Positions 40,131 to 57,690 of a DNA stretch of 64,000 nucleotides are shown piece by piece. Under the pieces are notes generated by a model. It ran no database searches and was not told the DNA's origin. It saw only the letters and a program-made list of their open reading frames with translations. Each line of letters begins with the position of its first letter. Position 1 is the first letter of the stretch. Location of the stretch: assembly GCA_900318205.1 (NCBI GenBank), contig ONJS01000011.1, positions 20,620 to 84,619 on the forward strand. The letters run 5' to 3'. The stretch comes from an uncultured Prevotellaceae bacterium. Its GTDB lineage: Bacteria > Bacteroidota > Bacteroidia > Bacteroidales > Muribaculaceae. The position numbers were made by a program, and so were the translations under genes.

Positions 40131-40209
40131 TGTCAATTTTTTACGACAGGAGATTCAAGTTTTCCTGACGGGGAAACGGAATGTGGGTAAATGATTCCTT
40201 CTACTTTTG
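40131..40209 (+). promoter_or_regulatory. Island promoter P1: bipartite operator plus -7 box
   Basis: TGTCAATTTTTTACGACA starts at 40131, second half TTCAAGTTTTCCTGACGG ends 40171, -7 box TACTTTTG at 40202 (71 bp from element start). Most diverged of six copies. Leader ~30 nt to the small membrane protein. Confidence 0.75.
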
Positions 40210-40243
40210 CGGTGTGAAATCGTTAGAAGTAGGAGGAATTATT

Positions 40244-40366
40244 ATGTTTTGGTTTATCATCGGAATCGTAATTGCGCTGCTGGGTGGGTTCATCATCCTC
40301 TCGGCGCAGCGCCATGTAATGAATGTCATCGGCGGGATCATCCAGACGATCTTGTCACTTTTTTGA
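40244..40366 (+). CDS. 40-aa single-helix membrane protein, MFWF family
   Basis: MFWFIIGIVIALLGGFIILS then AQRHVMNVIGGIIQTILSLF. One Gly-rich hydrophobic helix with an amphipathic tail. A paralogue of 47 aa lies at 57763-57906, also directly under an island promoter and also close to an Xre-type regulator. Preceded by AGGAGG, an unusually good Shine-Dalgarno for this phylum. Function unknown; size and shape would suit a small toxin or membrane-protein regulator. Confidence 0.65.
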   Translation: MFWFIIGIVIALLGGFIILSAQRHVMNVIGGIIQTILSLF

Positions 40367-40481
40367 ACTACGAACCTTTAGCTCAGCGAAGCCAATTTCG
40401 AATTGAACTAATGGGCATCCGCATATATTTTTACGAATTATTTTCACATCAATTAATCATAACAAAAACAAGAACAAGAAC

Positions 40482-40865
40482 ATGGAATCTAACATATTTA
40501 TCAATCAAGTCACGGAACTTTATGCAGCGGCATTGGCCGAGGCCATAGCGCTGTTGAAGAACAACGAGAACGGGCGATACATCGCCATCCCGAACTGGGA
40601 GGATGAGGTGGCTGCCACTTCTTGGAACGATGTGCCTATCAGCATCTGGGGTGTCGGTCTTAATGACGACGAGCACATTTGCGTCAGGGCTTTTGTCAAC
40701 AATGTTGGATACGGCTACACCGAAGACGACTTCCCCCAGGACTGGACCGATATCACTGTAGAGAAGATCAACGCATCTTGTTATCCCGAGCTCTATCGTT
40801 TTGTCGCCGATAATATCGGCAAGGCGATGTCGAAGGAAGATGCCGATAACGTCGAATGGGAGTAA
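40482..40865 (+). CDS. Hypothetical acidic protein
   Basis: 127 aa. Helical start (FINQVTELYAAALAEAIALL) then EVAATSWNDVPISIWGVGL. Strongly acidic C terminus. No family recognised. Same strand as P1 and 115 bp after the small membrane gene; likely in its transcript. Confidence 0.6.
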   Translation: MESNIFINQVTELYAAALAEAIALLKNNENGRYIAIPNWEDEVAATSWNDVPISIWGVGLNDDEHICVRAFVNNVGYGYTEDDFPQDWTDITVEKINASCYPELYRFVADNIGKAMSKEDADNVEWE

Positions 40866-40915
40866 CACTGTTAAGCCAATCAGAAAGCTCAGATTAATCA
40901 GTTGTTGATTTTTTG

Positions 40916-40996
40916 TGTCTAGTTTTTCCGACAGGTGGTGTAAAGATATACCGACGGAATTGTGTGGGACGGGTCGAAAGATTCGTCCTACTTTTG
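40916..40996 (+). promoter_or_regulatory. Island promoter P2: bipartite operator plus -7 box
   Basis: TGTCTAGTTTTTCCGACA at 40916, second half TGTAAAGATATACCGACGG ending 40957, -7 box TACTTTTG at 40989 (73 bp). Drives the Xre-type regulator gene, along with a second promoter at 41059. Confidence 0.85.
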
Positions 40997-41058
40997 CAAT
41001 GTCATTTTTTGAAGGGGGATAATTGGAATTCATTATTTGCTTTTTCAGATAAAAACAT

Positions 41059-41066
41059 TATTTTTG
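41059..41066 (+). promoter_or_regulatory. Second -7 box before the Xre-type regulator
   Basis: TATTTTTG giving a very short leader to ATG 41082. It lacks the island operator. Confidence 0.5.
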
Positions 41067-41081
41067 TATATCAAAATTATT

Positions 41082-42257
41082 ATGAAGAGTATGGAAAAAT
41101 ATCACGTTGGACATGAGATTGAGAAGGAATTGCGTGCTCAGGGGAAGTCGGCAAGGTGGTTGGCTGATAAGATTTGTCTGACGCCGCAAGCTGTGTATGA
41201 CATCTTTAAAAGGGAGTACATCTCCACCGCACGCTTAATAAAGATTCAGCGTGCACTGGAGCGCGACTTTTTCATGGAATATTCTAAATATATTAAAAAT
41301 GGGGGTGTTGTCGCTGATGAGGAAGACGAGAGCGTAATCAAGGAACGCTTCGAGATGCTGATGCCCGAGGACAAGCTGCATGTTCTTGACTGGGAGAAGT
41401 ATTATGAACTGGCCGAAGAGTTTGTCATGACTGAGCATCACAAGCCACTGATTATCTACACAAACGACTGGGCTGCACAAACAAGTGTGATTAATAATGT
41501 TGCCGATGCTGAGCTTGGCATTGGAAAAGTGCATAATCTCGACTTGAAGGATGAACGCAAGAAGGGAAAGACTGACGATGATATGGTCCAAATTGTAAAG
41601 GCTATGCCGCACCCCATTATCCAAGTGGTGAGCCCGAGCGGTGACAATGACTTCCATTTCTTGGTTTCTTTGGCCCAAGTTACTGGCAAGAAGGTGTTCG
41701 CTTATTGCAGGGTACTCCAAACGATCAACAATTATACCAATGTTCCAGAGTATCATGACACAACCATCAAGCCTTTCGGTGCATGGCATGAGCAAATCCA
41801 TTTTGCTTTTGTTGATGACAATCGCCAGTCCTACAGGCAGACGCGCCAGTTGTTTTTAGCAGATTGGGGTGAGGACATCTTGAGCTTTCTCAAGGCACAC
41901 ATGCCAGACCTGCTCAACGACAAAGACCACAATACTATTTTGGAATGGCTGAACAATCCCGAGTCACTCTATGAAGCCTATCGAACATGGCTTGATGCTC
42001 GGGCCAGAAAACAAGCTTGGCTTAAAGATTTTACTCTCATGTTCATGGACGATAAGTTGAACTTCAAGCAAGATGGTTCTCGTTGGTCCATCAGTCTGCC
42101 GGTGGACTATATAACCGAGAATACCTACAAAAACAAATTGATGAAGGACTCCCTTCGACGATTGTCCATGTGGATTGAGATCCAAAACGATTACATCGTT
42201 GACTTTGAAGGGTCTTTAAGGCAAAGTTATCTTGGAGATGATGCTTGTGAAGAATAA
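41082..42257 (+). CDS. Xre-type HTH regulator with degenerate nucleotide-binding-like C-terminal domain (copy A)
   Basis: 391 aa; ATG 41091 (MEKYHVG) also possible and fits the paralogue's start better. HTH: ELRAQGKSARWLADKICLTP and AVYDIFKREYISTARLI, followed by RALERDFFMEYSKYI as in Bacteroidetes Xre proteins. The C-terminal ~270 residues are unassigned; HKPLIIYTNDWAAQTSVINN sits where a P-loop would be but lacks GK[ST]. Same architecture as 57934-59451, though only weakly similar. Candidate binder of the six island operators. Confidence 0.7.
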   Translation: MKSMEKYHVGHEIEKELRAQGKSARWLADKICLTPQAVYDIFKREYISTARLIKIQRALERDFFMEYSKYIKNGGVVADEEDESVIKERFEMLMPEDKLHVLDWEKYYELAEEFVMTEHHKPLIIYTNDWAAQTSVINNVADAELGIGKVHNLDLKDERKKGKTDDDMVQIVKAMPHPIIQVVSPSGDNDFHFLVSLAQVTGKKVFAYCRVLQTINNYTNVPEYHDTTIKPFGAWHEQIHFAFVDDNRQSYRQTRQLFLADWGEDILSFLKAHMPDLLNDKDHNTILEWLNNPESLYEAYRTWLDARARKQAWLKDFTLMFMDDKLNFKQDGSRWSISLPVDYITENTYKNKLMKDSLRRLSMWIEIQNDYIVDFEGSLRQSYLGDDACEE

Positions 42258-42296
42258 AAAGAGTGGAATTGTGGCACATCTTTATCAAAAATGATG

Positions 42297-42304
42297 TATT
42301 TTTG
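42297..42304 (+). promoter_or_regulatory. -7 box for the 67-aa gene
   Basis: TATTTTTG; leader of ~67 nt to ATG 42376 containing the shared leader element. Confidence 0.6.
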
Positions 42305-42323
42305 TGGAAAGAAAAAAGAGGTT

Positions 42324-42349
42324 GCCAAATCGCTTGAAAGGAAGTAGGC
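42324..42349 (+). promoter_or_regulatory. Shared leader element, copy L1
   Basis: GCCAAATCGCTTGAAAGGAA-GTAGGC, two or three bases different from L2-L4. Ends 26 nt before the start codon. Confidence 0.75.
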
Positions 42350-42375
42350 ATTTAACTAATAAATGAAGAACGAAT

Positions 42376-42579
42376 ATGGGAAACTATCATGTGAAATTCC
42401 GCGTCCATTACGTTGGCGGAACGACCGATGAATTCGACGAAGTAATCAGTGAGGAAAAGTACCATTGGTACTCCGATGGCAGTCAAGGCTCAAGCCGTAT
42501 GGCTGCTCTGGCTGAACAGCATGACTACAAGGGTCGCAAGGTCAACTACGTGACAATGTCACTGATAAAGATTGTCTGA
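42376..42579 (+). CDS. Small hypothetical protein
   Basis: 67 aa (MGNYHVKFRVHYVGGTTDEF ... VTMSLIKIV). Predicted beta-alpha-beta. The start MxxYxVxFxV resembles the 57-aa protein at 53318. Expressed from its own promoter with the shared leader. Confidence 0.65.
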   Translation: MGNYHVKFRVHYVGGTTDEFDEVISEEKYHWYSDGSQGSSRMAALAEQHDYKGRKVNYVTMSLIKIV

Positions 42580-42613
42580 TAAGTTGTTTATCTGGGCAAT
42601 GTTCAGATATAAA

Positions 42614-42898
42614 ATGAGTAGGAGCAAGTTACGTAGCCAGTGGATGAGGAATAAGTTTGATTCTGACGAACACAATCCCCACAAATATGATGAGATGCCC
42701 AAGAATTCGGTTCCTAAGCATATCAACATGCGTTGCGACATGTCGACGGTCGCTTGGCTGCAAGAGAGTGGCTCTTTTGGTGGTCACAAGGTCCGGCACG
42801 CAGGGCACCGAATGGTCAGTGGCATTGTCCGTCAGAAGATGAGAGAGGAATTGCGTGAGGAAATCGCCAATGAACTCGACCCAAAGAGTAAAGAATAA
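42614..42898 (+). CDS. Small basic hypothetical protein
   Basis: 94 aa from ATG 42614 (MSRSKLRSQWMRNKF); an earlier in-frame ATG at 42572 overlaps the previous gene and is less likely. Mixed Arg/Lys-rich ends, C-terminal helix EELREEIANELDPKSKE. No family recognised; may bind nucleic acid by composition. Confidence 0.55.
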   Translation: MSRSKLRSQWMRNKFDSDEHNPHKYDEMPKNSVPKHINMRCDMSTVAWLQESGSFGGHKVRHAGHRMVSGIVRQKMREELREEIANELDPKSKE

Positions 42899-42924
42899 CC
42901 GATTCATTTTGTGGTAAATAGAAT

Positions 42925-43004
42925 CGTCCAGTTTTTCCGACACAAGGTGTCAAGTTATACCGACGGATATTTGTAGGTCGGATTGGGGATTCGATATAAT
43001 TTTG
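42925..43004 (+). promoter_or_regulatory. Island promoter P3: bipartite operator plus -7 box
   Basis: CGTCCAGTTTTTCCGACA at 42925, second half TGTCAAGTTATACCGACGG ending 42966, -7 box TAATTTTG at 42997 (72 bp). The leader starts with a long hairpin (GCAGCG...CGCTGC, 43004-43041) and is ~67 nt long. Confidence 0.9.
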
Positions 43005-43075
43005 CAGCGTCAAACCTTCGGAGAGTGGGATTTGGCGCTGCTTAAGATTATTCATCAATTAAAACATATCGAGTT

Positions 43076-43981
43076 ATGACAGTAAAAGAATTAAAGAACG
43101 CCCTGCAGGGCATCAGCGAGCCTATCGACCGCATCGCCGGTTTCTGTGACAACTACGACCAGATGTTTGACCACTGCGAGGTGCGTGTTAACGAGAACAC
43201 CGTGGAAATTGACACTAGTGAGGATCTTTTCAAACCCGAGAATTTCCAGCCTGTTGCCGAATCCATCGCCCGGATTCTTGCCTTGCCCGTAGAGGTGGAC
43301 GAGCACTTTGTTTTGTATGAGGGTGCGGACAATCAAGCCGAGACCTGCCTGCTCACGCGTGATATCCGCAGGGTCAACGTCGTGCAGAGCACAGCGGGGA
43401 CTGGCATCAGCTTGCAGGGGCCGCAGCCGAGTGGTGTGCTGAATAGGGGCTTATATGTAACCAAGCTGTTCGTGAACGATGAGCGCGCCAAGTCGCTCAA
43501 CGAGATGTTCTGCGACTTTCTGGAGGATATGGAAGCGACCTGCGATCAAGCCATCATTGAAGATCGCAATGAGGGGGTTTTTATTCAGATCGTCACCGAT
43601 GAGTTCTCGAGTGCATCGTTGATAGCCCTGATGGCCGGCACATTCAAGGATGTGGTTTTCTGCCGCGTTCCGTTTGACAGCAGTGATGAGGTGATCAATC
43701 GACTAACGAACGACTATGAAGGCAGCTGCTGGGGCAAGCATGCAGCCGTCTACGTGCCTGCCGATGACCGTGAAAGTGTTATCAACCATGAGCATTATAA
43801 GTATTGCATTCAGGATATGGTCTATGCCAAGACAGAATGCGATACCGAGCAGGAGGCAGTGCAGTTCATCGCCGAGCACAACCCCGACAAGGAACTGGGC
43901 GACATTGCAGTGCGCTTTGTCAGCCGCTATATCGAGAATCCTCTTGACCTCATTCTGAAGCCTTGGCCAGAAGATGAATGA
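43076..43981 (+). CDS. Hypothetical protein of the island regulon
   Basis: 301 aa, acidic, no signal peptide or membrane helix. N-terminal MTVKELKNALQGISEPIDRI, a beta-rich middle and C-terminal YIENPLDLILKPWPEDE. No recognised motif or catalytic pattern. High GC3 like the surrounding host genes, unlike the nuclease-fold genes of the island. Confidence 0.7.
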   Translation: MTVKELKNALQGISEPIDRIAGFCDNYDQMFDHCEVRVNENTVEIDTSEDLFKPENFQPVAESIARILALPVEVDEHFVLYEGADNQAETCLLTRDIRRVNVVQSTAGTGISLQGPQPSGVLNRGLYVTKLFVNDERAKSLNEMFCDFLEDMEATCDQAIIEDRNEGVFIQIVTDEFSSASLIALMAGTFKDVVFCRVPFDSSDEVINRLTNDYEGSCWGKHAAVYVPADDRESVINHEHYKYCIQDMVYAKTECDTEQEAVQFIAEHNPDKELGDIAVRFVSRYIENPLDLILKPWPEDE

Positions 43982-44017
43982 TTACGAGTAATCATTGAAT
44001 AATTCAGCAAAATTGAC

Positions 44018-44025
44018 TATATTTG
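44018..44025 (+). promoter_or_regulatory. -7 box for the esterase-fusion gene
   Basis: TATATTTG; ~28-nt leader to ATG 44058. It also argues against the ATG at 43995. Confidence 0.6.
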
Positions 44026-44057
44026 CATTCAAATTAATCCACAAATCAATTATACGT

Positions 44058-45197
44058 ATGAACGAAAAGAAGATAAAAGTGTTTGCCCAAGTTGGAGACG
44101 ATTTGCTTTTTGATGTATCTGTGACTGTTCCTCAAGATGTTTGGGATGAGGAAGTGGACGGGCTCGAAGATGCGGTGAGAGACGATATTGAGAACTGTGA
44201 TGACGATGAGGACTTCGAGCAAGACCTTGCTGATGAGCCTTATTATGGTGGCTATATCGGTTCAGCTGATGGCTGTAGTCATGGTTATACTTCTGCACAC
44301 GGACGTATAGCTTACCACTTGGTCTCATGTCAGTTCGGAAGTATACTTGCACGTCTCGGAGTTCTTGAGCAGCTTCGTGATGCCATCGTCAAGGATCTTG
44401 TTGAGAGTGATACCGAACATCAGCATGAGAAGGAGTTGCAGATGCTGAAAGGTATCAAAAACTTTGTGCAAGCGATGTTGGGAGAAGATGAGGATGATTA
44501 CGAGTGTTACGAAGGTAGTGGCAGCGATAGTGACGAAGAACAGGTTATTACTATCTGGGATCGCTATCCTCTTGAACTGTTAGACGAACTAGCCGAAAGG
44601 GTCTATGGCATTCCACAAAAGAAAACAATCGTTTATTTACACGGTTACGGATCCAGCAGCCAAAGCAATACAGCGAAATATCTGGCCAAGAAGATGCCAG
44701 AATACAACGTGATTGCCCCTGACATTCCGGTCGACCCAGTGGAGGCTCTGCCATTTCTGAAGGATTATTGTGAAACCCATCATGCTGACCTGGTGATTGG
44801 CACCAGCATGGGAGGCATGTATGCCATGCAGATGCCCAAATGTCTGCGCATCTGCGTTAACCCGGCTCTGTATCTATCTCAGGTGAAGGATGTCCTCCAG
44901 GTGGGCACCTTTGAGTACTTCCAGCCGACAGCCGATGGCAGAACACACTACACGATTACCGAAGAGATTATCCAGCATTTCAAGGAGATGGAGGCGCACC
45001 TGTTTGGCCGTGAGACAAGTGAAGGCAGGTATAACTGTTGGGGCTTCTTTGCCGACGGTGACACGCTCGTCAACTGCAAGGACGAGTTCGCCCAGCATTT
45101 TACTCATGTGGAAGACTTCCACGGCGAGCACCGCATGAACAATCAAGTCCTCCGTGACATCATCATTCCCGCCGCCAAAAGAATCCTCACAGAGTAA
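44058..45197 (+). CDS. Acidic domain fused to a YqiA-like alpha/beta hydrolase
   Basis: 379 aa. Residues 1-180 form a very acidic unassigned domain (EDEDDYECYEGSGSDSDEEQ). Residues ~185-379 are a UPF0227/YqiA-like esterase: TIVYLHGYGSSSQSNTAKYL (oxyanion loop), VIAPDIPVDP, nucleophile elbow GTSMGG, and a C-terminal HRMNNQ region with the catalytic His. Probable soluble esterase. The N-terminal fusion is not usual for the family, where the esterase stands alone at ~190 aa. Confidence 0.8.
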   Translation: MNEKKIKVFAQVGDDLLFDVSVTVPQDVWDEEVDGLEDAVRDDIENCDDDEDFEQDLADEPYYGGYIGSADGCSHGYTSAHGRIAYHLVSCQFGSILARLGVLEQLRDAIVKDLVESDTEHQHEKELQMLKGIKNFVQAMLGEDEDDYECYEGSGSDSDEEQVITIWDRYPLELLDELAERVYGIPQKKTIVYLHGYGSSSQSNTAKYLAKKMPEYNVIAPDIPVDPVEALPFLKDYCETHHADLVIGTSMGGMYAMQMPKCLRICVNPALYLSQVKDVLQVGTFEYFQPTADGRTHYTITEEIIQHFKEMEAHLFGRETSEGRYNCWGFFADGDTLVNCKDEFAQHFTHVEDFHGEHRMNNQVLRDIIIPAAKRILTE

Positions 45198-45203
45198 CGA
45201 GCA

Positions 45204-46052
45204 GTGAAATCCAAACGAAAAATCCCCGCCTGGCTGGAGAAATGGCAGTCGGAGTTCCGACCTTGCGTTGACGTGTGCAAGGACTTAGAGACAGAAGCCT
45301 TGTCCAAGCAGTTGACTCCTGAACAACAGGAGGAAGTGAAAATGATGATTAGGATGTATGTCGAAATAGACAGTGGCATTCATCGTGCTATAAGTGATGC
45401 CCATAAAAAAATATGGGATGCATTGTTCCCTCTGGAGGACGAGATTATAAAATATTGGCATGAGAATGGCTACTACAATTTGGTGATTGATCAAAACGGG
45501 AAAAAGGGCGTGAAGAACCTGGACTTCAGTGTAGCCTTGTCTCCTGAATATGAGGCGGTGCGCTTCACTTACGATGAGTCTGTGTTTTTCTATGGTCTGG
45601 CGAGTTATTTTGTAGTCAAGCAAGATGGGAAATGGGGTATTGTCAATAACGAGCACGATGTTTTGGTGCCTTTTGAATATGATGATATCTATCGCAAACC
45701 AGAGAATTTTAGTGAGTTCGTTCTGGTGAAAGAAGGCAAGCAGGGGGTAGCCTATCTTGACGACAATGAAGTCACAATTCCCGTCCCTGTTACCATGGAT
45801 GCAGTCTATTATGTCCAAAAATGGGATTTGACACTATTCTCTAAGGATGGCAAGTGGGGTTGGTGGTGGCATGAACCCGACAAGTCCGGCATCTTTAAGA
45901 ACTATAGCGAACCCCTATATGACGAAATCTTCGTCCAGCGCTGGCAAGACAGAAATATGGATGAAAAGGTTGATGATTATATCATTGCCCGAAAAGGCGA
46001 TGACCTCCACTGGATCCTCTACTGGTCCATAGATTGTCATGAAGTGACATGA
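45204..46052 (+). CDS. WG-repeat-like protein
   Basis: 282 aa starting at GTG 45204, 6 bp after the esterase stop. Helical N terminus, then WG-type units (NGKKGVKNLDF, QDGKWGIVNNEHDVLVPFEY, EGKQGVAYLDD, KDGKWGWWWHEPDKSG). WG repeats form beta folds of unknown binding role. Likely co-translated with the upstream gene. Confidence 0.75.
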   Translation: MKSKRKIPAWLEKWQSEFRPCVDVCKDLETEALSKQLTPEQQEEVKMMIRMYVEIDSGIHRAISDAHKKIWDALFPLEDEIIKYWHENGYYNLVIDQNGKKGVKNLDFSVALSPEYEAVRFTYDESVFFYGLASYFVVKQDGKWGIVNNEHDVLVPFEYDDIYRKPENFSEFVLVKEGKQGVAYLDDNEVTIPVPVTMDAVYYVQKWDLTLFSKDGKWGWWWHEPDKSGIFKNYSEPLYDEIFVQRWQDRNMDEKVDDYIIARKGDDLHWILYWSIDCHEVT

Positions 46053-46171
46053 AGCAGAGTTCGATCCATTACCCAATAACTGAACATTCTGATGAATCTG
46101 GTTCATCCACTCCCTATTGCAAATGAAAAGAGTCAGAGCAATCAATATATTCAGTTGTTCCCATAATAAAT

Positions 46172-47014
46172 TTAGAAAAGATTTACTAAATGTTGCCATT
46201 GTGTGTTGGTAATATTGTTAACAAGATTCCCTTGACTCAACCATACACGTTGCCTATTTTTTAACAATAACTTATTGGGGTATGTTCGTAGCCTATACCC
46301 AATATTATTATCTGTGATATTGTACCATTCATTCTCCTTCCGCATGATGATGATTACTTTTCCCGCATTCATTGCCTCCTCTATAAGCCAATTACGGTAT
46401 TCATATGATGGCAGATAATCAGGAAATTTAAAGCCTCTATTTGAATGATAGGGGAAGTACTCAATAAAAAAGATTTTTGGATCTCTTCCCAGTTGTTGCC
46501 TTAGAGAACTCCACATCTCTCTATGCCAAAAATTCCCAACATGAGGCCTTGGGTTAACACTGGTAACTATAGGCCTTTGTTTCTGAGGAGTATTAAAATA
46601 GTTATCAAGTATTTGATCCCGAAGTTTCAAATTATCATATATCGGTTTGCCAGTCTCGAATATGCATCCATCGTCTCGAAAACGATGACTAAGTACATCT
46701 TGATTATACTTTTCAAGAACACCATTTCCATCATTAGCCTGAATAAAATCAAGATCAAGTTCTCCTGGATTCATATTAAGACAATAGACGTTACTGTTGA
46801 CATCTCCCCAAAATGGCTCTGGGAAATAATTAAAAGATAGATCTATATGCTTTTTCAGATTTGGATCATTTCTATCATTTCTATTAATGTATTTCACATA
46901 TTGCGAAGAGCCAAATGGCACTATTTTATTACCTCTTATTTGTATCGGATAATTCTTGTCACAATCAGCGATAGTATTTGACCAACTGATATTTAGCCAT
47001 GGGTTACTTGCCAT
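46172..47014 (-). CDS. Hypothetical protein, possible uracil-DNA-glycosylase-like fold
   Basis: 280 aa, minus strand in a plus-strand island. DVNSNVYCLNMNPGE resembles the NPG loop of UDG-like proteins, and IVTSVNPRPHVGNFWHREMW, FFIEYFPYH and IIIMRKENEW would be later core strands. The match is only to loop patterns; alternative folds are open. AT-rich, likely acquired separately. Confidence 0.5.
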   Translation of the reverse strand: MASNPWLNISWSNTIADCDKNYPIQIRGNKIVPFGSSQYVKYINRNDRNDPNLKKHIDLSFNYFPEPFWGDVNSNVYCLNMNPGELDLDFIQANDGNGVLEKYNQDVLSHRFRDDGCIFETGKPIYDNLKLRDQILDNYFNTPQKQRPIVTSVNPRPHVGNFWHREMWSSLRQQLGRDPKIFFIEYFPYHSNRGFKFPDYLPSYEYRNWLIEEAMNAGKVIIIMRKENEWYNITDNNIGYRLRTYPNKLLLKNRQRVWLSQGNLVNNITNTQWQHLVNLF

Positions 47015-47740: not shown

Positions 47741-47744
47741 CAGT

Positions 47745-48498: not shown

Positions 48499-48876
48499 AT
48501 GACAAACGAGCAATTAGATGAATTTTTGGCAGAAATTGGCCGCATGCCCTTGCTCACTCACGAAGAGGAGCTTGTGCTCTTGAAGGCAGTGCAGGAGAAT
48601 GGTGTGGAGTGCGACGAGATGAAGCTGTTGGAAAAAGCCAACATGCGCTTTGTTGTCAGTTTGATCAACCAGTATCAAAACCGTGGACTGACGTTTGAAG
48701 AGCTGATTAATGTGGCAACGGCTGGACTGAGGATGGCTGCAGAGCACTATGACTTCGATGCCGACAACAAGTTTATTGCCAATGCCGTTGGATTGATGCG
48801 CAAGCAACTTGAACAGGCCATCGCTGAAAAGGCAGCATCGGACGAGCCCAATAACAACGAGCTTGAAAACGACTAG
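48499..48876 (+). CDS. Sigma-70 region 1.2-2 fragment protein without regions 3 and 4
   Basis: 125 aa. Region 1.2: LDEFLAEIGRMPLLTHEEE. Region 2.1: KANMRFVVSLINQYQNRGLT (residues 46-65), nearly identical to primary sigma factors. Region 2.2: FEELINVATAGLRMAAEHYD, where the Q-E-G-N clamp-helix contact residues are replaced by N-V-A-T. Region 2.3: NKFIANAVGLMRKQL, where the DNA-melting aromatics are gone (E. coli Y425 to N90, Y430 to N95, W433/W434 to G98/L99). The chain then ends in a short acidic tail. It keeps the fold but loses core-clamp and melting residues, so a decoy, anti-sigma-like or scaffold role is likelier than initiation. Not a truncation artefact: the stop is clean and codon use is even. 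Confidence 0.75.
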   Translation: MTNEQLDEFLAEIGRMPLLTHEEELVLLKAVQENGVECDEMKLLEKANMRFVVSLINQYQNRGLTFEELINVATAGLRMAAEHYDFDADNKFIANAVGLMRKQLEQAIAEKAASDEPNNNELEND

Positions 48877-50912: not shown

Positions 50913-50986
50913 CATTCCCCCATTACGAAGTTTTGTGATAATAAATGCAGTCTGTGTGTTGTCAAATACTATACAAAAAAGAGAAG

Positions 50987-51166: not shown

Positions 51167-51175
51167 CATAGTGGG

Positions 51176-51255
51176 TGTCAAGTTTTTCCGACAGGCGGTG
51201 TCCAGTTTAACCGACGGAAAATCCTTTTTCTGGTCAGTGAACGCCAGTAACTTTG
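51176..51255 (+). promoter_or_regulatory. Island promoter P4: bipartite operator plus -7 box
   Basis: TGTCAAGTTTTTCCGACA at 51176, second half TGTCCAGTTTAACCGACGG ending 51217, -7 box TAACTTTG at 51248 (72 bp). The closest match to the two-half consensus, with both halves 18-19 bp and 23 bp apart. Confidence 0.9.
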
Positions 51256-51259
51256 CACC

Positions 51260-51487
51260 ATGAAAAATAAAATGAATATGAAGATTATGGTTAAATTGAT
51301 TTTTGCATTTTTGTTATTTCTGGCGACTCTCGCCGTTATCTGCTTTCCGCTGTTCGTGCTGTGGATGGGCATTTTTGCCCCTCTTTCCTTCTGGGGGCAC
51401 GTTGCTGTGACTGCCCTCGGCCTGTTCCTGTGCTATCTGGTCAAGCCTGTGTCGATTCTTACCGGTAATGATTATCAACTTTTCTAA
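51260..51487 (+). CDS. Small two-helix membrane protein of the island regulon
   Basis: 75 aa, two hydrophobic helices (LIFAFLLFLATLAVICF and VAVTALGLFLCYLV). ATG 51260 lies at the predicted transcription start; ATGs at 51272, 51278 or 51287 may be the real start. 12 bp ahead of the AAA+ gene; the two share promoter P4. Possibly a membrane partner for the ATPase. Confidence 0.6.
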   Translation: MKNKMNMKIMVKLIFAFLLFLATLAVICFPLFVLWMGIFAPLSFWGHVAVTALGLFLCYLVKPVSILTGNDYQLF

Positions 51488-51499
51488 AAACAATTGCCA

Positions 51500-53167
51500 A
51501 TGAACGAGATTGAACAAATCGTCGAAAAGATGACGCAATTTGAGGTTATCGAGAGTGTGGTGCGCAATGCCCAGAATTCAGAATTGGATGCCGCGTTCTT
51601 TGAACACGTCGGCCCTTTCCTGAAAAAAATAGCCGACAGGCAAAACCTTACCGAAGATCAGGCACTGATGTTCTGCCTGATGATGAACTTCTGCGACAGT
51701 TCCCACATCAGGTTGGGTGAACTGGCTCGCCATACGGGGCTGTCCACCGTTCATCTGTTGAAGTACCTTAACGACATCGATGAACTGGTCAAACGTGGTT
51801 TCCTCAAGTTGACCATCAGACATAACGACGGAGGCTACGCCATCCGTCATGAGGTAATCAAGGCCCTGAAGCAGGACAAGGCTTTTGAGATGGAAAGTCA
51901 TCGTGGCATCTCTTGCCCTGAGCTGTTCGACTTGATTGGGCAAATTTTGAACGATGAGGATGATTACGACGCTCAACAGGAGCAAATTCTGAATCTGCTC
52001 CAGGATAATCCTCAATTGCACATAGCACAGGTCATCAAGGGGCACCAGCTCAATGCTGATGATACCATGTTACTGATACTGTTTTGTTTCCTGTATGTGG
52101 ACAATGATGACGACATGGTACGGATTTCTGACCTCGGCGAACTCATCGACAGCCAGCGCCTTTTGCGCTCATGGAACCGCTCTTTGTCGAGGGAACAACA
52201 TATATTGCAGGAAAAGAAACTGATTGAGTTTAATAACTTCAGCCCGATGATTGACACTCGTTACTTTCGCTTGACCGACGAGGCCAAGGCCGACTTGTTG
52301 AGCGAAATGGACATCTGCGTCAAGAAGAAATCGAAGAAGAAAGAGTTGCCCAAGGACTTTGTCGGTTATAAGAGCGTTGTGGCCAAACAGATGTTCTACA
52401 CCCGCGACAACCAGGCTCAAGTGGAACGTCTCTCGCAATTGCTTGAGGAGAAGAAGTTCCGCGACGTGTGCCGCCATATGAAGGAACGTGGCATGCGCAC
52501 CGGCTTTGCCTGTTTGTTCTACGGCGCTCCTGGAACCGGAAAGACCGAGACCGTTATGCAACTCGCTCGTCAGATGAAGCGCAACGTCATGGTGGTAGAC
52601 TTCTCGCAGATCCGCAGCAAGTGGGTAGGCGACAGCGAGAAGAACATCAAGGGCGTCTTCACGCGCTATCGTGAAATGTGTACACAAATGCGTCGCAAAC
52701 CCATATTGCTCTTCAATGAGGCCGATGCCGTCATCAATACCCGTCAGGAGCAGGCCACACGTAGCGTGGACAAGATGGAGAACACCATGCAGAATATCAT
52801 CCTGCAGGAGATGGAGCAGTTTGACGGCATCATGATTGCCACCACCAATCTGGCCCAGAGCATGGACCCGGCCTTCGAGCGCCGTTTCTTGTATAAAATC
52901 ATGTTCGAGCGCCCCGATGCCAGCGTGAGAGCCAACCTCTGGCAGGAGATGATACCGGAACTGGACACTGAGGAATGCCAAGCACTCGGCGAGCAGTTTG
53001 ACTTCAGCGGCGGCCAGATCGAGAACGTGGCCCGCAAGTATGCCATTAACACCATCCTCAACGACATCAAGCCGAGTAACCGCTTGAGCGAGTTAATCGC
53101 TCTCAGCCGCGAGGAATGCATCAACGACACCCAGTCAACGCGAACCCACGTCGGCTTCGTCGCATGA
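51500..53167 (+). CDS. AAA+ ATPase with long N-terminal helical/winged-helix region
   Basis: 555 aa from ATG 51500 (MNEIEQIVEKM). N-terminal ~270 residues contain a winged-helix-like segment (GLSTVHLLKYLNDIDELVKR). AAA+ module: Walker A YGAPGTGKTE at ~342, SKWVGDSEKNIKGVFTRY, Walker B ILLFNEADAV (Asn in place of the usual Asp before Glu), sensor 1 MIATTNLAQ, arginine finger DPAFERRFL. The fold is that of the large ATP-dependent remodeller family of Bacteroidetes islands. Expressed from P4 with a small membrane protein. Target unknown. Confidence 0.83.
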   Translation: MNEIEQIVEKMTQFEVIESVVRNAQNSELDAAFFEHVGPFLKKIADRQNLTEDQALMFCLMMNFCDSSHIRLGELARHTGLSTVHLLKYLNDIDELVKRGFLKLTIRHNDGGYAIRHEVIKALKQDKAFEMESHRGISCPELFDLIGQILNDEDDYDAQQEQILNLLQDNPQLHIAQVIKGHQLNADDTMLLILFCFLYVDNDDDMVRISDLGELIDSQRLLRSWNRSLSREQHILQEKKLIEFNNFSPMIDTRYFRLTDEAKADLLSEMDICVKKKSKKKELPKDFVGYKSVVAKQMFYTRDNQAQVERLSQLLEEKKFRDVCRHMKERGMRTGFACLFYGAPGTGKTETVMQLARQMKRNVMVVDFSQIRSKWVGDSEKNIKGVFTRYREMCTQMRRKPILLFNEADAVINTRQEQATRSVDKMENTMQNIILQEMEQFDGIMIATTNLAQSMDPAFERRFLYKIMFERPDASVRANLWQEMIPELDTEECQALGEQFDFSGGQIENVARKYAINTILNDIKPSNRLSELIALSREECINDTQSTRTHVGFVA

Positions 53168-53317
53168 ATTAGAAAAACTGATTCATCTGAATAATCTGAA
53201 CAAATCAGCACCCATTCGTCGTCCTGTTGAGCAGCAAGACTAGCGGCTCACGGAGGCGGATGCCAATTCAGAAAACTCAGATGAATTAGTTGTTGAATTA
53301 ACCCAAACAAAGTTATT

Positions 53318-53491
53318 ATGGAACGATACAAAGTTTATTTTAAAATCAAGGGAGACGATTGTCTCAACATTTACCATACCAGTGCCACCTGTGAACAAGA
53401 GGCCATCTGGCAATGGCAAGCCAGCTTCTTTGCCAAATATAACGAGTGCGAATTTCTCGGCGTGAAACTAGCTTCACTAGAGAATAATTAG
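53318..53491 (+). CDS. 57-aa protein whose end overlaps the next gene's promoter
   Basis: MERYKVYFKIKGDDCLNIYH ... FAKYNECEFLGVKL. Even codon use. A decayed copy of its 3' half plus promoter occurs at 54888-54971. The stop TAG is immediately followed by the -7 box TAAATTTG (53492). Distantly like the 67-aa protein at 42376. Function unknown. Confidence 0.65.
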   Translation: MERYKVYFKIKGDDCLNIYHTSATCEQEAIWQWQASFFAKYNECEFLGVKLASLENN

Positions 53492-53499
53492 TAAATTTG
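53492..53499 (+). promoter_or_regulatory. -7 box for the metalloprotease-like gene
   Basis: TAAATTTG directly after the 57-aa ORF stop; leader ~66 nt to ATG 53570, with leader element L2. No island operator upstream. Confidence 0.65.
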
Positions 53500-53521
53500 C
53501 CACATCTATTCAAAAGAGAAA

Positions 53522-53547
53522 GCCGAATCGCTTGAAAGGACGTAGGC
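53522..53547 (+). promoter_or_regulatory. Shared leader element, copy L2
   Basis: CGCTTGAAAGGACGTAGGC preceded by GCCGAAT, identical to L3 and L4. Ends 22 nt before ATG 53570. Confidence 0.8.
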
Positions 53548-53569
53548 AGTAAATTATAATGACTATATT

Positions 53570-54826
53570 ATGCAAGGATTTAACGGAGCAGATTATCAAG
53601 ATGATGATGATGAACTTGTTGATCCGCAGACAACAAGAAGAACTCTATACACCGAGAGTTCTCGCCACCTAGTAATTACCGGTTGGTCGGAAAGAAGTAT
53701 TGACCTAAACAAGCTTACCTCATCTCTTGATATCCCTAATGAAGAAATGGTTAATTGTTTCAGAGACAAGAACGGCTTCTATTGTTGGGTGCTATCATTA
53801 AGCGGGAAGCTTATAGCAAACACTGAATGCGATTTGGGTTCTATCATCGTAGGCTGTTTGCCTTACCTTAATAATTATATCAATGTTGCTCTTGTTTATT
53901 TAGAGAAACAGGAGGGTGGTAATAATATAAACATAATCAAATACTACTTTCATGATATAATAACAGAGAGTAATAAAAAACAAAAAATAAATATATTACA
54001 AGTAAAAATTAATGACTTATTTTCTGAAACGATTGAAGAGAAAGTGTTTTGCCCTACTTTGTGTAAGGATATAGTAAATCATTATTTGGCGCTAGGAATA
54101 AATAGAGCAAGTACCTGTGTTAATCCAGAAGATGTCAATGGAAATCTTAGTAAACTTAAAGATAATAATTTCGATTTCCCCAGTAACGTTTTGCCAGAGT
54201 TTTCCCTGTTTAATTATCATCTAGATAACTTATCCAAGTTACCAATACTATTAAGTTTCAAGGATATTCAGCATACTGAATTATGGAAAAGCCAAGATTG
54301 GGGAGCAGAGTATGAGGATTATATCCCCAAAACACCAGTTTTTGGCTATTATTCTTCTCATGATGAAGATGGATGCAAAGGTCCACATATTGTTTTATGT
54401 CCTTTAAACATCAAGAATGCAGCAAATGAAGAGGATGCAGTCAAACTGGATATTGATGAGCTGTTGATATATAAAATTGTACTCATACATGAACTTGCTC
54501 ATGCTATGATGGATAAGAATCATGTATCTTTGAACTCGTTATTCTCTCGCGCCATGGAAGAGTCATTAGCTAATATGATTACATTGCAATGGTTTGAGAA
54601 ATTTGACCATTCAAATTATAAAAAAGTTAAGTCATTCATAGAAACTCAACCTGAGATTTATAAATTTGGTATCAATCAGTTTGAAGCTGGTGTTGATTGG
54701 ACAAAATGGCGTGACAGTAAGAAGATGCATAAATTGCTAAAAGAATGGTTTGATAAGTGCTTTGTTCCAGAACTCTTAGAACAACCCCAAAAGGTTCGTG
54801 CTGAATATAATCGCGTTTTGAAATAG
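53570..54826 (+). CDS. Putative zinc metalloprotease with HExxH motif
   Basis: 418 aa, AT-rich, no signal peptide. LIHELAHAMMD at His307-Glu308-x2-His311 and SRAMEESLANMITLQ, whose Glu330/331 lies 19-20 residues further, as the third ligand in gluzincin-like proteases (E-x2-A-N/D). N-terminal two-thirds are unassigned (ILYTESSRHLVITGWSERS at the start). Intracellular proteases of this shape are seen in toxin-antitoxin and defence-type loci. Substrate unknown. Confidence 0.72.
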   Translation: MQGFNGADYQDDDDELVDPQTTRRTLYTESSRHLVITGWSERSIDLNKLTSSLDIPNEEMVNCFRDKNGFYCWVLSLSGKLIANTECDLGSIIVGCLPYLNNYINVALVYLEKQEGGNNINIIKYYFHDIITESNKKQKINILQVKINDLFSETIEEKVFCPTLCKDIVNHYLALGINRASTCVNPEDVNGNLSKLKDNNFDFPSNVLPEFSLFNYHLDNLSKLPILLSFKDIQHTELWKSQDWGAEYEDYIPKTPVFGYYSSHDEDGCKGPHIVLCPLNIKNAANEEDAVKLDIDELLIYKIVLIHELAHAMMDKNHVSLNSLFSRAMEESLANMITLQWFEKFDHSNYKKVKSFIETQPEIYKFGINQFEAGVDWTKWRDSKKMHKLLKEWFDKCFVPELLEQPQKVRAEYNRVLK

Positions 54827-54887
54827 ACTAAAAAGCAAAAGTAACAAATGTACAGAATAATTATTGTATATTTACCATTGGATTGTT

Positions 54888-54962
54888 AAGCCAGTCCACT
54901 TCGCCAAGTACAACAAGTGCGAATTTATTGGCGTGAAACTTGCATTCCCGAAAAATAACCGC
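54888..54962 (+). pseudogene. Decayed 3' half of the 57-aa gene
   Basis: Reads FAKYNKCEFIGVKLAFPKNNR-stop in frame against FAKYNECEFLGVKLASLENN of the gene at 53318, with mostly third-position and conservative changes, so it was once functional. The 5' half is missing and one base is inserted upstream. Confidence 0.75.
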
Positions 54963-54970
54963 TAACTTTG
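54963..54970 (+). promoter_or_regulatory. -7 box for the DUF3791/DUF3990 operon
   Basis: TAACTTTG right after the decayed copy, matching the relation between 53491 and 53492. Leader ~37 nt to ATG 55012. Confidence 0.6.
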
Positions 54971-55011
54971 CGCATTGAGAGAATAGGTTAAACGTGAAAT
55001 AGAGAATAGCC

Positions 55012-55233
55012 ATGTCCAATTTGGTGCTGGATAAAATAGAATACCTCATCTTGCTGGTGGCAGAATTTGCCGCTCTATGCAAAGTGACCGAGGCACAAGC
55101 CTATCGCTATCTGAGCGGGTATGGAGCCCTTGAGTTGTGCGATAAGCATTACAATATCATGCATACGCTCTCGGTTGACGACAATATCCAGACACTGCGA
55201 TCCTACTGTCAGCGGAAAGGAGGGACATTATGA
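55012..55233 (+). CDS. DUF3791 family protein (putative antitoxin-side partner)
   Basis: 73 aa. LLVAEFAALCKVTEAQAYRY then LSGYGALELCDKHYNIMHTL fits the DUF3791 pattern. These proteins usually precede a DUF3990 protein. Its stop overlaps the start of the next gene by 4 bp (ATGA). Confidence 0.75.
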   Translation: MSNLVLDKIEYLILLVAEFAALCKVTEAQAYRYLSGYGALELCDKHYNIMHTLSVDDNIQTLRSYCQRKGGTL

Positions 55234-55700
55234 AACTTTACCACGGCACAACTGTTGATATAGAGCAGATTGATTTATCAAAGTCCAGACCGAACAAGGA
55301 CTTTGGACGTGCTTTTTATCTTTCAACCGAAGAGGCTCAAGCAATGGAGATGGCTCAATTCAAGGCGGCATTCGAGGATGCCACACCGATTGTCAACGTC
55401 TATGAGTTCGACGATAACCTGTTTGAACAATTCCGTTGCAAGCGATTTGAAGAGTACACAACCGAATGGGCACACTTTGTCTATGATCATCGCACAGAGC
55501 CCAATGGATGCACCCTACACGATTTTGACATCGTTTACGGCCCGATAGCAAATGACCGTATCGGAGCCCAAATCGCCCGTTTCAAGCAAGGTTACATTAC
55601 GTTTGATGAATTTCTCAAACGCATTCAATACATCAAGGGTATCACTTTCCAATATGCCTTTTGCACACAAAGGTCTGTTGACAAATTAGTAAAGTTATGA
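55230..55700 (+). CDS. DUF3990 protein, ADP-ribosyltransferase-like toxin candidate
   Basis: 156 aa. MKLYHGTTVDIEQIDLSKSR, DFGRAFYLSTEEAQAMEMA and VYEFDDN match the DUF3990 core, which has an ADP-ribosyltransferase-like fold (Y-H-G start, G-x-FY-S/T strand). Flanked by overlapping small genes, as for a toxin-antitoxin unit. Biochemical activity is not demonstrated here. Confidence 0.8.
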   Translation: MKLYHGTTVDIEQIDLSKSRPNKDFGRAFYLSTEEAQAMEMAQFKAAFEDATPIVNVYEFDDNLFEQFRCKRFEEYTTEWAHFVYDHRTEPNGCTLHDFDIVYGPIANDRIGAQIARFKQGYITFDEFLKRIQYIKGITFQYAFCTQRSVDKLVKL

Positions 55701-55921
55701 ACGTGTCCAGCGCTGAATTCCAAAACATGAAAGCCGATATCGTGAAGGACATGATATCCAGGCTTATGGACGAGCGTGGACTCTCCATGCAAGAGGCTTT
55801 TGATGCAGTATATTCTTCCCGTTTGTTTGAGAAATTAAACGACCCCAGCACTGGCCTTTATTTCCAGTCTTCTGGATACGTCTATAGTTACCTGAAAGAC
55901 GAATTGGGCGATTTTAACTGA
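55697..55921 (+). CDS. Small third gene of the DUF3791/DUF3990 operon
   Basis: 74 aa, overlapping the DUF3990 stop by 4 bp. Helical (MKADIVKDMISRLMDERG, SMQEAFDAVYSSRLFEKL) with a GLYFQSSGYVYSYLKDEL end, like the DUF3791-type or small YefM-like accompaniments of DUF3990 loci. Could be the antitoxin. Confidence 0.72.
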   Translation: MNVSSAEFQNMKADIVKDMISRLMDERGLSMQEAFDAVYSSRLFEKLNDPSTGLYFQSSGYVYSYLKDELGDFN

Positions 55922-55979
55922 AGGATTTCGCTCAAATATGCCGATGAGAAGATATTGAAACGTCCTTGACCACTTTTAG

Positions 55980-56059
55980 TGTCCAGTTTTTCCGACACCG
56001 CTGTCAAGAACCATGATACATGAATATTTGGCTGGATTTGACAGTGTGAAGTATTTTTG
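55980..56059 (+). promoter_or_regulatory. Island promoter P5: operator plus -7 box
   Basis: TGTCCAGTTTTTCCGACA at 55980 then only the core TGTCAAG of a second half, -7 box TATTTTTG at 56052 (72 bp). The next ~45 bp are nearly identical to P6. Leader 70 nt with leader element L3. Confidence 0.9.
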
Positions 56060-56081
56060 CATCGTCAAAATGAAAGAAAAA

Positions 56082-56107
56082 GCCGAATCGCTTGAAAGGA
56101 CGTAGGC
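56082..56107 (+). promoter_or_regulatory. Shared leader element, copy L3
   Basis: GCCGAAT then CGCTTGAAAGGACGTAGGC, 26 nt before ATG 56134. Confidence 0.8.
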
Positions 56108-56133
56108 GAAATATTATTTTCAAAAAACTGAAT

Positions 56134-57495
56134 ATGGGAAAAAGCAACTGGGAACAAATGTTTCTGTTCAATAATGATCCAAATGTAAACAAACTAAGAA
56201 ATCTTTATTCAACTCCTTCTTGGTTTGAAGTCTTGGGTGTTGACAGAATTGAGGCATTGCACAGCAATTTCATTGCATGGTTTTTAGGTAATACTAAACT
56301 GGGGCTCAACCAGAGTGAGAATGCCATGACGAGATTCATTGATGTTGTTATAAAGCAAAGCAAGATTCAGAAAGTAGAAGGAGTAGATGACGACCTTATC
56401 AATTCTGTAGCGGCGAGAGATATCGCAATAAAAGACATTAATATCGATAAGGAAGTATCATATAAAGATAGCAAGAACAACAATCGAATCGATCTGATTG
56501 TCACATGCGATATTTGTGTGAATAACGTAGATAAGGAGCTTGTCCTCTTTATCGAGAACAAAGTTGGAGCCAATGAAACGTTCAACCAGAAAAGTGACAA
56601 GTTTCAAACCCAGGTATATTTTGATCAATACCATAATGATTCATACTCTAACCAGATTCAACTCTTTGTTTTCTTATCTCCTTATGACAACGCAAAATGT
56701 GATTGCGACGATTTCATAAGAATTACCTATAAAGACTTACTGATGCATGTACTTGTGCCAACGATGAAATACGTCACTATTAGTGAACACGACAGATTGT
56801 TCATTATGGAGTATGTACGAACTCTTGGTGCTCAAGTTATGAATCATCAAGATTTGGGTTTTGTCATTGCTATAACTGATAACGAAAAGGAAGCATATTC
56901 TGAGATTTACAAGTCATATGAATCATTATTCTTGAATGCAATGGCAGCAAAGATTTCGGAACGATATGGGAAAAGCTCAATACCAACAAAGAATAAGTGG
57001 TCTGCGAAATTAAAAGAATGGGAATTAACTTTTTCAGATAAACCAGATAAGCAACTAATCGCTTTCTGGGATAGCAATAGTGCTTTTATTAAAAACACAA
57101 TTGATATTGCTGGACCTGAAAATAAGAACGAACTGGTAAATGCAATTAATGTCATTCTCAAGGATCGAAGTGAGTTTGTTGTAGAATATTCGGGACAAAG
57201 AATCCGTGTCAATAAGAGCCATTTGGCTGCTGAGATTGTTAGAGCATACATAACATTAAAGGCGCTTAATGAAAATGACTCTGATAAATTGAAAGATTTT
57301 TTCAGAGGCATTCGTGAGCCGTTCATTATTGAGGAGGTGCCTTGTCGTAGTGGTAATAACAGAAAAATTTATGATCCTGTAACCTTGGGGCCCAAAACAA
57401 TCTGGATTCCCAACAATTGTTGGCCTGCTGGTGGCCGTCAGTTTAGAAGATTACTTAAGGTCGCTAATAAGGTTGACGGTTTGACATTAGAATAG
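56134..57495 (+). CDS. PD-(D/E)XK nuclease-superfamily protein (PF14281-like), second copy
   Basis: 453 aa from ATG 56134 (MGKSNWEQM), which the leader element defines; the longer frame from 56092 is rejected. RIDLIVTC (Asp120) and LFIENKVG (Glu141-x-Lys143) form the nuclease core, then QTQVYFDQYHND. N-terminal LYSTPSWFEVLGVDRIEALH and SNFIAWFLG match the paralogue at 38614. AT-rich. Unlike that paralogue it has no DUF2779 neighbour and is under the island operator. Confidence 0.82.
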   Translation: MGKSNWEQMFLFNNDPNVNKLRNLYSTPSWFEVLGVDRIEALHSNFIAWFLGNTKLGLNQSENAMTRFIDVVIKQSKIQKVEGVDDDLINSVAARDIAIKDINIDKEVSYKDSKNNNRIDLIVTCDICVNNVDKELVLFIENKVGANETFNQKSDKFQTQVYFDQYHNDSYSNQIQLFVFLSPYDNAKCDCDDFIRITYKDLLMHVLVPTMKYVTISEHDRLFIMEYVRTLGAQVMNHQDLGFVIAITDNEKEAYSEIYKSYESLFLNAMAAKISERYGKSSIPTKNKWSAKLKEWELTFSDKPDKQLIAFWDSNSAFIKNTIDIAGPENKNELVNAINVILKDRSEFVVEYSGQRIRVNKSHLAAEIVRAYITLKALNENDSDKLKDFFRGIREPFIIEEVPCRSGNNRKIYDPVTLGPKTIWIPNNCWPAGGRQFRRLLKVANKVDGLTLE

Positions 57496-57610
57496 CTTAC
57501 ACAAATTTTGTATAATTGCTATAGATTGAGTATATTTGCCATTGGATTGTAGAAGCACTCCAATGGCATTTGGATAGAAACCAGTATGTGCTCATGACAT
57601 AAACTTTTAG

Positions 57611-57690
57611 TGTCCAGTTTTTCCGACACGGCTGTAAAGAACTATGATACATGAATATTTGGCTTGCTTTGGCGATGTAGAGTAATTTTG
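57611..57690 (+). promoter_or_regulatory. Island promoter P6: operator plus -7 box
   Basis: TGTCCAGTTTTTCCGACA at 57611, partial second half TGTAAAG, -7 box TAATTTTG at 57683 (72 bp). About 130 bp of P5 and P6, including the leader, are ~85-90% identical, a recent duplication or strong selection. Confidence 0.9.

What the first reader, a model, noticed from the sequence alone, without database searches (positions are those of the whole stretch)
40131..57690. Six island promoters share a bipartite operator at a fixed 71-73 bp from the -7 box
TGTCCAGTTTTTCCGACA starts at 40131, 40916, 42925, 51176, 55980 and 57611; the -7 box TAnnTTTG starts 71, 73, 72, 72, 72 and 72 bp later. In four copies a second half (TGTCAAGTTATACCGACGG-like) follows 23 bp after the first. 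Fixed spacing means the element works with the polymerase at -79 to -37. This defines a regulon inside the island: a small membrane protein, an Xre-like regulator, a 301-aa protein, a membrane protein/AAA+ pair, a nuclease and a second membrane protein/regulator pair.
Basis: seen in the sequence. Interest (0 to 1): 0.88.

Follow-up and report, generated by a model that had tools for sequence, protein, structure and literature searches.

The report
Shared switch for a gene island
Six promoters in one bacterial gene island carry the same DNA docking site at a fixed distance from the start signal, and relatives keep this arrangement next to a gene for a DNA-binding protein, so the island is probably switched as one unit by its own regulator.

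Summary
Six promoters (40131-57690) carry TGTC-N10-GACA with TAnnTTTG starting 71-73 bp later. The 'second half' is a second copy of the operator (site B, 49-50 bp before the box).

The genome holds no other site at <=2 mismatches. Six more species of the genus have 20 such promoters; conservation starts at site A. Other genera have a single operator 50-51 bp before the box. A family scan allowing 31 spacings gave 18 of 19 hits at 50-51 or 71-73.

An island HTH protein (HTH391, 41082-42257) tracks the operator: homologues beyond the bare HTH occur in 7 of 101 genus genomes, all with operator promoters, and in five genomes of other genera, all with the operator before the HTH gene. Exceptions: G318's homologue lacks the HTH, G355 has an operator but only a stop-containing copy of the second HTH protein (HTH505), G209 has a site without HTH391. 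HTH391, HTH505 or both may bind.

Best reading: an autoregulated activator of a defence-like island. Activation is inferred from position; no binding or expression was measured.

The parts
40131..40148 (+). operator site A of the TM40 promoter (weakest copy)
40153..40170 (+). weak site B
   Evidence: 5 mismatches to TGTCNAGTTATACCGACG
40202..40209 (+). -7 box TACTTTTG
   Evidence: 71 bp after A
40244..40366 (+). TM40, 40-aa small membrane protein
   Evidence: ORF; 82.5% identical homologue behind the same operator in G318
40916..40933 (+). site A of the HTH391 promoter P1
40939..40956 (+). site B of P1
40989..40996 (+). -7 box of P1, TACTTTTG
   Evidence: 73 bp after A
41059..41066 (+). candidate operator-less second promoter P2, box TATTTTTG
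   Evidence: second box in 5 of 6 HTH391 promoters (not in G017, whose start codon is 100 bp from A), 0 of 13 other operator genes tested
41082..42257 (+). HTH391, candidate regulator (HTH_3-like N-terminus; start at 41082 or 41091)
42925..42942 (+). site A of the 301-aa gene
42948..42965 (+). site B (no mismatch to the B consensus)
42997..43004 (+). -7 box TAATTTTG
   Evidence: 72 bp after A
43004..43041 (+). inverted repeat spanning the predicted start region of the 301-aa gene
   Evidence: 14 predicted pairs in 6 orthologues, no pair with changes on both sides
43076..43981 (+). 301-aa protein, no family match
51176..51193 (+). site A of TM75-AAA+
51199..51216 (+). site B
51248..51255 (+). 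-7 box TAACTTTG
   Evidence: 72 bp after A
51260..51487 (+). TM75 small membrane protein
51494..53167 (+). AAA+ ATPase, C-terminal half resembling IetA
   Evidence: Pfam AAA 4.3e-25; PADLOC IetA 4.4e-29 over residues 300-544
55980..55997 (+). site A of the nuclease-like gene
56002..56019 (+). diverged site B
56052..56059 (+). -7 box TATTTTTG
   Evidence: 72 bp after A
56134..57495 (+). PDDEXK_4 nuclease-like protein
   Evidence: Pfam 1.2e-15; PADLOC PDC-S26 6.8e-20
57611..57628 (+). site A of TM47-HTH505
57633..57650 (+). diverged site B
57683..57690 (+). -7 box TAATTTTG
   Evidence: 72 bp after A
57763..57906 (+). TM47 small membrane protein, 42.5% identical to TM40 over 40 residues
57934..59451 (+). 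HTH505, second candidate regulator

Best explanation
The 18-bp element TGTC-N10-GACA is the operator of an island-encoded HTH transcription factor: HTH391, its paralogue HTH505, or both. The factor binds just upstream of the core promoter, in this genus on two tandem copies about two helical turns apart. From there it most likely activates sigma-ABfr-type promoters by contacting RNA polymerase, driving its own gene and a set of small membrane proteins, an AAA+ ATPase, a nuclease-like protein and proteins of unknown function. HTH391 would be made at a basal level from an operator-less second promoter and amplify itself when its C-terminal part senses a signal. Shown: the sites, their geometry and conservation, the co-occurrence with the HTH gene, and the conserved second -7 box. 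Inferred: binding, dimers, activation rather than repression, the signal, and a defence or stress role.
For: Sites and spacing. Island-only in the genome at <=2 mismatches. Seven species of the genus carry 26 promoters with A-to-box 71 (10), 72 (13), 73 (3); one search listed sites with <=2 mismatches whether or not a box followed, and all A sites among them had it. Orthologous promoters (25 of the 26; G336:41000 has no group): A 78-90% and box 92-100% identical, versus 27-36% for the 50 bp upstream of A, ungapped. Co-occurrence in the genus: HTH391 homologues beyond the bare HTH in 7 of 101 genomes, all 7 with operator promoters that the motif search also found; among the TGTC-N10-GACA hits with a box in all 101 genomes, the AGTTTTTC-type core is seen only in these seven (read by eye). 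Other genera: homologues at 31-41% identity in G279, G006 and G374 have a single operator 50-51 bp before a box directly in front of the HTH gene (0, 3 and 4 mismatches to A); G006 and G374 have further copies before other genes. Prediction test: the pattern alone then found G201 and G210, and both have HTH391 homologues beside the sites. 52 loci whose match was only the bare HTH domain contain no TGTC-N10-GACA. Second -7 box: 5 of 6 HTH391 promoters versus 0 of 13 others tested.
Against: G318 keeps three operators although its HTH391 homologue lacks the HTH; it has HTH505. G336 and G017 have operators and HTH391 but no HTH505 match. G355 has an operator promoter (site A with a 1-bp insertion, site B, box) without an HTH391 match, and its HTH505 homologue contains two in-frame stops. 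So neither protein alone explains all genomes. G209 has a site at exactly 50 bp and no HTH391-family match in a 94%-complete genome. The -33 box is no weaker than in leader promoters without the operator (TTTG 4 of 26 versus 3 of 22, TTG 11 of 26 versus 12 of 22), so this gives no sign of activator dependence. BrxR is thought to repress also from a box upstream of a promoter (R-BOX2), so position is not decisive. The site is only a 4-bp dyad around an asymmetric core. No binding or expression data exist.
Confidence: 0.63

Rival explanations
1. Same sites and same HTH proteins, but as a repressor that silences the island until a signal releases it, as BrxR does for a BREX island.
For: BrxR represses a defence island from inverted repeats, and its second box, R-BOX2, lies upstream of PbrxA, where the authors hypothesise repression (PMC9122601; abstract and sections 18 and 23 read). 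Autoregulation fits either sign. The -33 box is not weaker than elsewhere.
Against: The sites end about 30 bp before the -7 box, upstream of the core promoter, while BrxR R-BOX1 lies immediately downstream of its promoter. Spacing precise to 1-2 bp is not needed for occlusion. P2 before HTH391 carries no operator.
Confidence: 0.25
2. A regulator encoded elsewhere in the genome binds the site, and the HTH genes are only passengers or targets.
For: G209 has the site at 50 bp without an HTH391-family match; G318 lost the HTH of HTH391; G355 has the operator without HTH391 and with a stop-containing HTH505 copy.
Against: All six genomic sites lie in the island, and HTH391 comes with the operator in 7 of 7 genus genomes and in five genomes of other genera.
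Confidence: 0.07
3. The repeats are copied promoter cassettes without regulatory function.
For: The 55972-56115 and 57603-57746 stretches are 89% identical, so promoter copying did happen.
Against: Site A is conserved where upstream sequence is not, sites differ in sequence yet keep spacing, and other genera keep the single site at 50-51 bp.
Confidence: 0.03
4. The element is an extended promoter read by an alternative sigma factor or an UP element for the polymerase alpha subunit.
For: Fixed distance to the -7 box.
Against: The -7 box is the ordinary sigma-ABfr type, the element is an 18-bp dyad-ended sequence rather than plain A+T-rich DNA, and in the scans and 101 sites at these spacings come with the HTH gene, G209 excepted.
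Confidence: 0.02

Closest known systems
BrxR / CapW WYL-domain regulators of defence islands
   Same: island-encoded HTH protein controlling more than one promoter of a defence-like island through repeated dyad operators
   Different: no WYL match; operator always upstream of the core promoter at fixed spacing, whereas R-BOX1 is just downstream of its promoter and R-BOX2 upstream of PbrxA; Bacteroidales; probably activator; six promoters against two R-BOXes
P2 Ogr / P4 Delta activation of phage late promoters
   Same: TGT-N12-ACA element repeated before every late operon of one phage (PMC3931495, passages); a position near -55 is recalled, and the site B centre here is near -53 by inference
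   Different: Ogr is a CX2CX22CX4C zinc-finger protein; HTH391 and HTH505 have no such motif and an HTH instead
short XRE (Cro/CI-type HTH) proteins common in Bacteroidales
   Same: the N-terminal 70 or so residues
   Different: HTH391 and HTH505 carry about 300-430 further residues of unknown fold; the 52 loci of short matches examined lack the operator dyad

Membership tests
XRE / Cro-CI HTH proteins | HTH_3-type domain | tested here: met
   8 of 8 HTH391 members (best 4.3e-6) and 4 of 5 HTH505 members (best 1.1e-4) match HTH_3 at E <= 0.1; the two window proteins score 20.8 and 21.4 bits, below Pfam's cut-off of 23
BrxR / CapW | WYL domain | tested here: not met
   no WYL match at E <= 0.1 in any of 13 members
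BrxR / CapW | repression from operators at the promoter | tested here: inconclusive
   sites end about 30 bp upstream of the -7 box, unlike R-BOX1 but not clearly unlike R-BOX2; sign of regulation not testable
Ogr / Delta | CX2CX22CX4C zinc finger | tested here: not met
   C..C, 18-26 residues, C....C found in 2 ORFs of the eight stretches scanned, neither a candidate regulator
Ogr / Delta | TGT-N12-ACA site before each operon | tested here: met
   26 A sites: T22 G25 T26 and A26 C26 A21
sigma-ABfr promoter | -7 TAnnTTTG | tested here: met
   6 of 6
sigma-ABfr promoter | -33 TTTG | tested here: inconclusive
   TTTG in 4 of 26 operator promoters and 3 of 22 others; PMC7366714 (passage) says it was not identified in Flavobacterium johnsoniae
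AAA+/STAND-type regulators | AAA+ domain after the HTH | tested here: inconclusive
   low-confidence model (pLDDT 64.7); the top Foldseek hits are mostly AAA+/P-loop proteins, with some Rgg2 HTH regulators, but none at E <= 0.001; no AAA match in Pfam for either protein family
IetAS defence | IetA ATPase with subtilisin-like IetS partner | tested here: not met
   the AAA+ protein matches the NCBIfam model with 96.1 bits against a cut-off of 510; no subtilisin-family Pfam match among the island proteins scanned, which were not all ORFs

The most novel reading that the evidence does not exclude
A new class of Bacteroidales island master activators: an HTH fused to a degenerate nucleotide-binding or AAA+-like sensor, paired with its own operator at a fixed place before the -7 box. 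Different islands would use different operator codes with the same logic. A second code, GAACCAACAAGAACC with the box starting 48 bp after its start in all 10 places examined, already exists in the genus and, in G017, beside the HTH391 operator.
Probability: 0.3. Interest if true: 0.78.

Novelty: new variant of a known kind. Interest (0 to 1): 0.62.

Why it matters
How multi-gene defence-like islands are switched on as a unit is poorly known; my searches showed no account of it for Bacteroidales, though only listings and three papers were seen. Here the operator, its geometry and candidate regulators are defined well enough to be tested with one or two proteins and one reporter. The operator can also serve as bait: it led to islands in other genera, and genes behind it are candidate members of one response even when they match no family.

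Tried and rejected
Rfam on 34000-61000 gave only two snoRNA matches below their gathering scores. A missing -33 box as a sign of activator dependence was tested and is not supported. Generic TGTC-N10-GACA with a box at offset 46-76 hits 60 of 101 genus genomes, more than its backwards control; many of these hits are one recurring, apparently coding stretch ending GATATCTTTG or the like, so the dyad alone is not specific and the TTTTTC core is needed. The <=2-mismatch genus search hits 38 of 101 genomes, mostly with single hits at a rate comparable to its backwards control; I did not check the box at every one of those, but one search covers those with intact TGTC and GACA ends. G060 has an exact site without a box. 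Viral contigs: 6 exact sites, none with the box, and no relative of the regulator. Plasmids: no HTH391 relative; the phage collection was not searched. Solved structures: only weak matches of the HTH to 8tac_A (E 0.031 and 0.0026) and one chance-level hit. The HTH505 model (pLDDT 37.5) was not searched. The typed motif letters occur in one unrelated amphibian paper. Of ten literature searches I saw listings, and opened three papers in part.
Full report
The six sites are real. TAnnTTTG follows at 71, 73, 72, 72, 72, 72; a random position in the island has a box at 71-73 with probability 0.0031. The window's genome as held (3.62 Mb, 53 contigs, 94.8% complete) has six sites at <=2 mismatches, all here, with one hit for the backwards control.

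Site B (TGTCNAGTTATACCGACG) lies 49-50 bp before the box and 21-23 bp after A (B was placed by taking the best of four offsets, so its spacing is slightly favoured). Nineteen of 26 promoters have B with <=5 mismatches. Of the other seven, five are of the HTH505/nuclease type and share TGTNNAGAA...GATAC.

Relatives in the genus. Around the candidate regulator I fetched stretches of six other species. With the window there are 26 promoters, A-to-box 71 (10), 72 (13), 73 (3). Sites with <=2 mismatches were listed whether or not a box followed, and all A sites among them had it; two with 3 and 4 mismatches (G193) were listed because they had it. Ungapped identity between orthologous promoters (25 of 26) is 0.27-0.36 in the 50 bp upstream of A, 0.78-0.90 in A, 0.61-0.86 in B, 0.71-0.78 in the spacer, 0.92-1.0 in the box and 0.40-0.65 after it. 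Conservation thus starts at A. An eighth genus genome, G355, has A with a 1-bp insertion, B and the box before a TM75-like protein.

Targets of the 26: HTH391 (6), the 301-aa protein (6, one running off its contig without a readable ORF), TM75 (6, followed at once by the AAA+ ORF in 4, by a 94-aa piece in G336, by none in G193), TM47 or a 222-aa protein with HTH505 further on (4), TM40 (2), a 133-aa protein (1) and the nuclease-like gene (1, window). The nuclease homologue in G260 (68%) has a promoter without the operator, while the window copy has a 144-bp duplicate (89%) of the TM47-HTH505 promoter. So cargo can be brought under control by promoter copying.

The regulator. HTH391 has an HTH_3-like N-terminus. 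At E <= 0.001, 39 of 101 genus genomes match it, most by the HTH domain alone; homologues beyond the bare HTH occur in 7 (G000, G349, G260, G017, G193, G336, G318), and all 7 carry operator promoters. In a 397-genome family sample, 11 genomes match at E <= 1e-12: six of this genus, three others with more than the bare HTH (G006, G279 and the contig-end piece in G374, 31-41% identity), and two with the HTH alone (G271, G200). G006, G279 and G374 have the operator directly before the HTH gene, as a single copy 50-51 bp from the box (3, 0 and 4 mismatches to A). In G374 a second operator stands before a small membrane protein and a protein about 21% identical to the 222-aa protein of G260 and G193.

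Spacing-blind test. Over 297 family genomes, TGTNNNNTTTTTCCGACA with TAnnTTTG at any of 31 offsets (46-76) gave 19 hits in 9 genomes; 18 lie at 50, 51, 71, 72 or 73, one at 75 (G226); the backwards control gave 2 hits, both in G199. Several hits are orthologous, so they are not independent. G201 and G210, found only by this pattern, then proved to have HTH391 homologues next to the sites (the G201 one is cut by the contig end, the G210 one is split over two frames). G209 (offset 50) and G226 (offset 75) have no HTH391-family match. In genome contigs, 61 exact sites in 60 stretches gave six with the box at 51 or 71-73 (L030, L046, L059 twice, L064, L039), all on contigs with HTH391; the other 55 have no box at those offsets.

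Which protein binds is open. HTH505 homologues longer than the HTH occur in six genus genomes (G000, G318, G260, G193, G349, and G355 with two in-frame stops). It is related to HTH391 over the HTH and the start of the next domain (98.7% probability). G336 and G017 have operators with HTH391 only. G318 has operators with HTH505 and an HTH391 homologue that lacks its HTH. G355 has no HTH391 match. G209 has none of the HTH391 family; HTH505 was not searched there.

Sign of regulation. Position (upstream of the core promoter, fixed within 1-2 bp) argues for contact with polymerase. A second, operator-less -7 box follows P1 in 5 of 6 HTH391 promoters (not in G017) and in 0 of 13 other operator genes; the six TM75 promoters, with their short leaders, and the contig-end one were not in that test. 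This is as expected for a basal promoter feeding an autoregulated factor, but does not by itself tell activator from repressor. The -33 box is not weaker than elsewhere, and BrxR's R-BOX2 is upstream of a promoter too.

Function of the island is inferred. PDDEXK_4 nuclease-like genes matching PADLOC PDC-S26 (38614, 56134), an IetA-like AAA+ (51494) and a DUF2779 gene (36493) suggest defence or stress, but many island proteins scanned match nothing. The HTH391 model is of low confidence and its fold matches, mostly AAA+/P-loop, are not significant.

Known systems. BrxR also controls a defence island from repeated dyads but is a WYL repressor (PMC9122601; abstract and sections 18 and 23 read). 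P2 Ogr uses the same TGT-N12-ACA spacing for activation of several operons (PMC3931495, passages) but is a zinc-finger protein. HTH391 lacks the defining protein feature of each. The -7 consensus is from PMC7366714 (passage).

Noticed in passing
42324-42349, 53522-53547, 56082-56107, 57713-57738: A 5'-leader element GCCGAATCGCTTGAAAGGACGTAGGC. At <=1 mismatch it is in 23 of 101 genus genomes with no backwards-control hit; in 26 of 30 loci a -7 box starts 23-45 nt before its core, and it mostly stands about 45-55 nt before start codons of unrelated genes. Not part of the regulon, no Rfam match; possible new leader RNA or translation element.
   Followed up: partly
L140 -19641 and -18371, L145, L151, L153, L253-L261: A second operator code, GAACCAACAAGAACC, with the -7 box starting 48 bp after its start at 10 of 10 places examined (9 pattern hits in 7 of 101 genomes, control 0, plus the L153 variant). 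The L153 copy precedes a TM40/TM47-like protein, and G017 has two copies beside its HTH391 operator.
   Followed up: partly
48499-48876: A 125-aa protein matching only sigma-70 region 1.2 and part of region 2 (Pfam 1.2e-5 and 6.9e-4), with a homologue in G193: a truncated sigma-like protein in the island.
   Followed up: no
53570-54826: A 418-aa protein without a Pfam match that holds HELAH, a zinc-peptidase-like HExxH motif (read from the translation; the motif's meaning is recalled).
   Followed up: no
55230-55700: DUF3990 protein (Pfam 1.2e-44) with a weak ADP-ribosyltransferase match.
   Followed up: no
53428-53500 and 54899-54971: A 73-bp promoter-proximal stretch repeated at 74% identity, another sign of promoter copying in the island.
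   Followed up: no
60006-60629: Serine resolvase gene just right of the operator genes (Pfam 1.5e-22), possible mobility gene.
   Followed up: no
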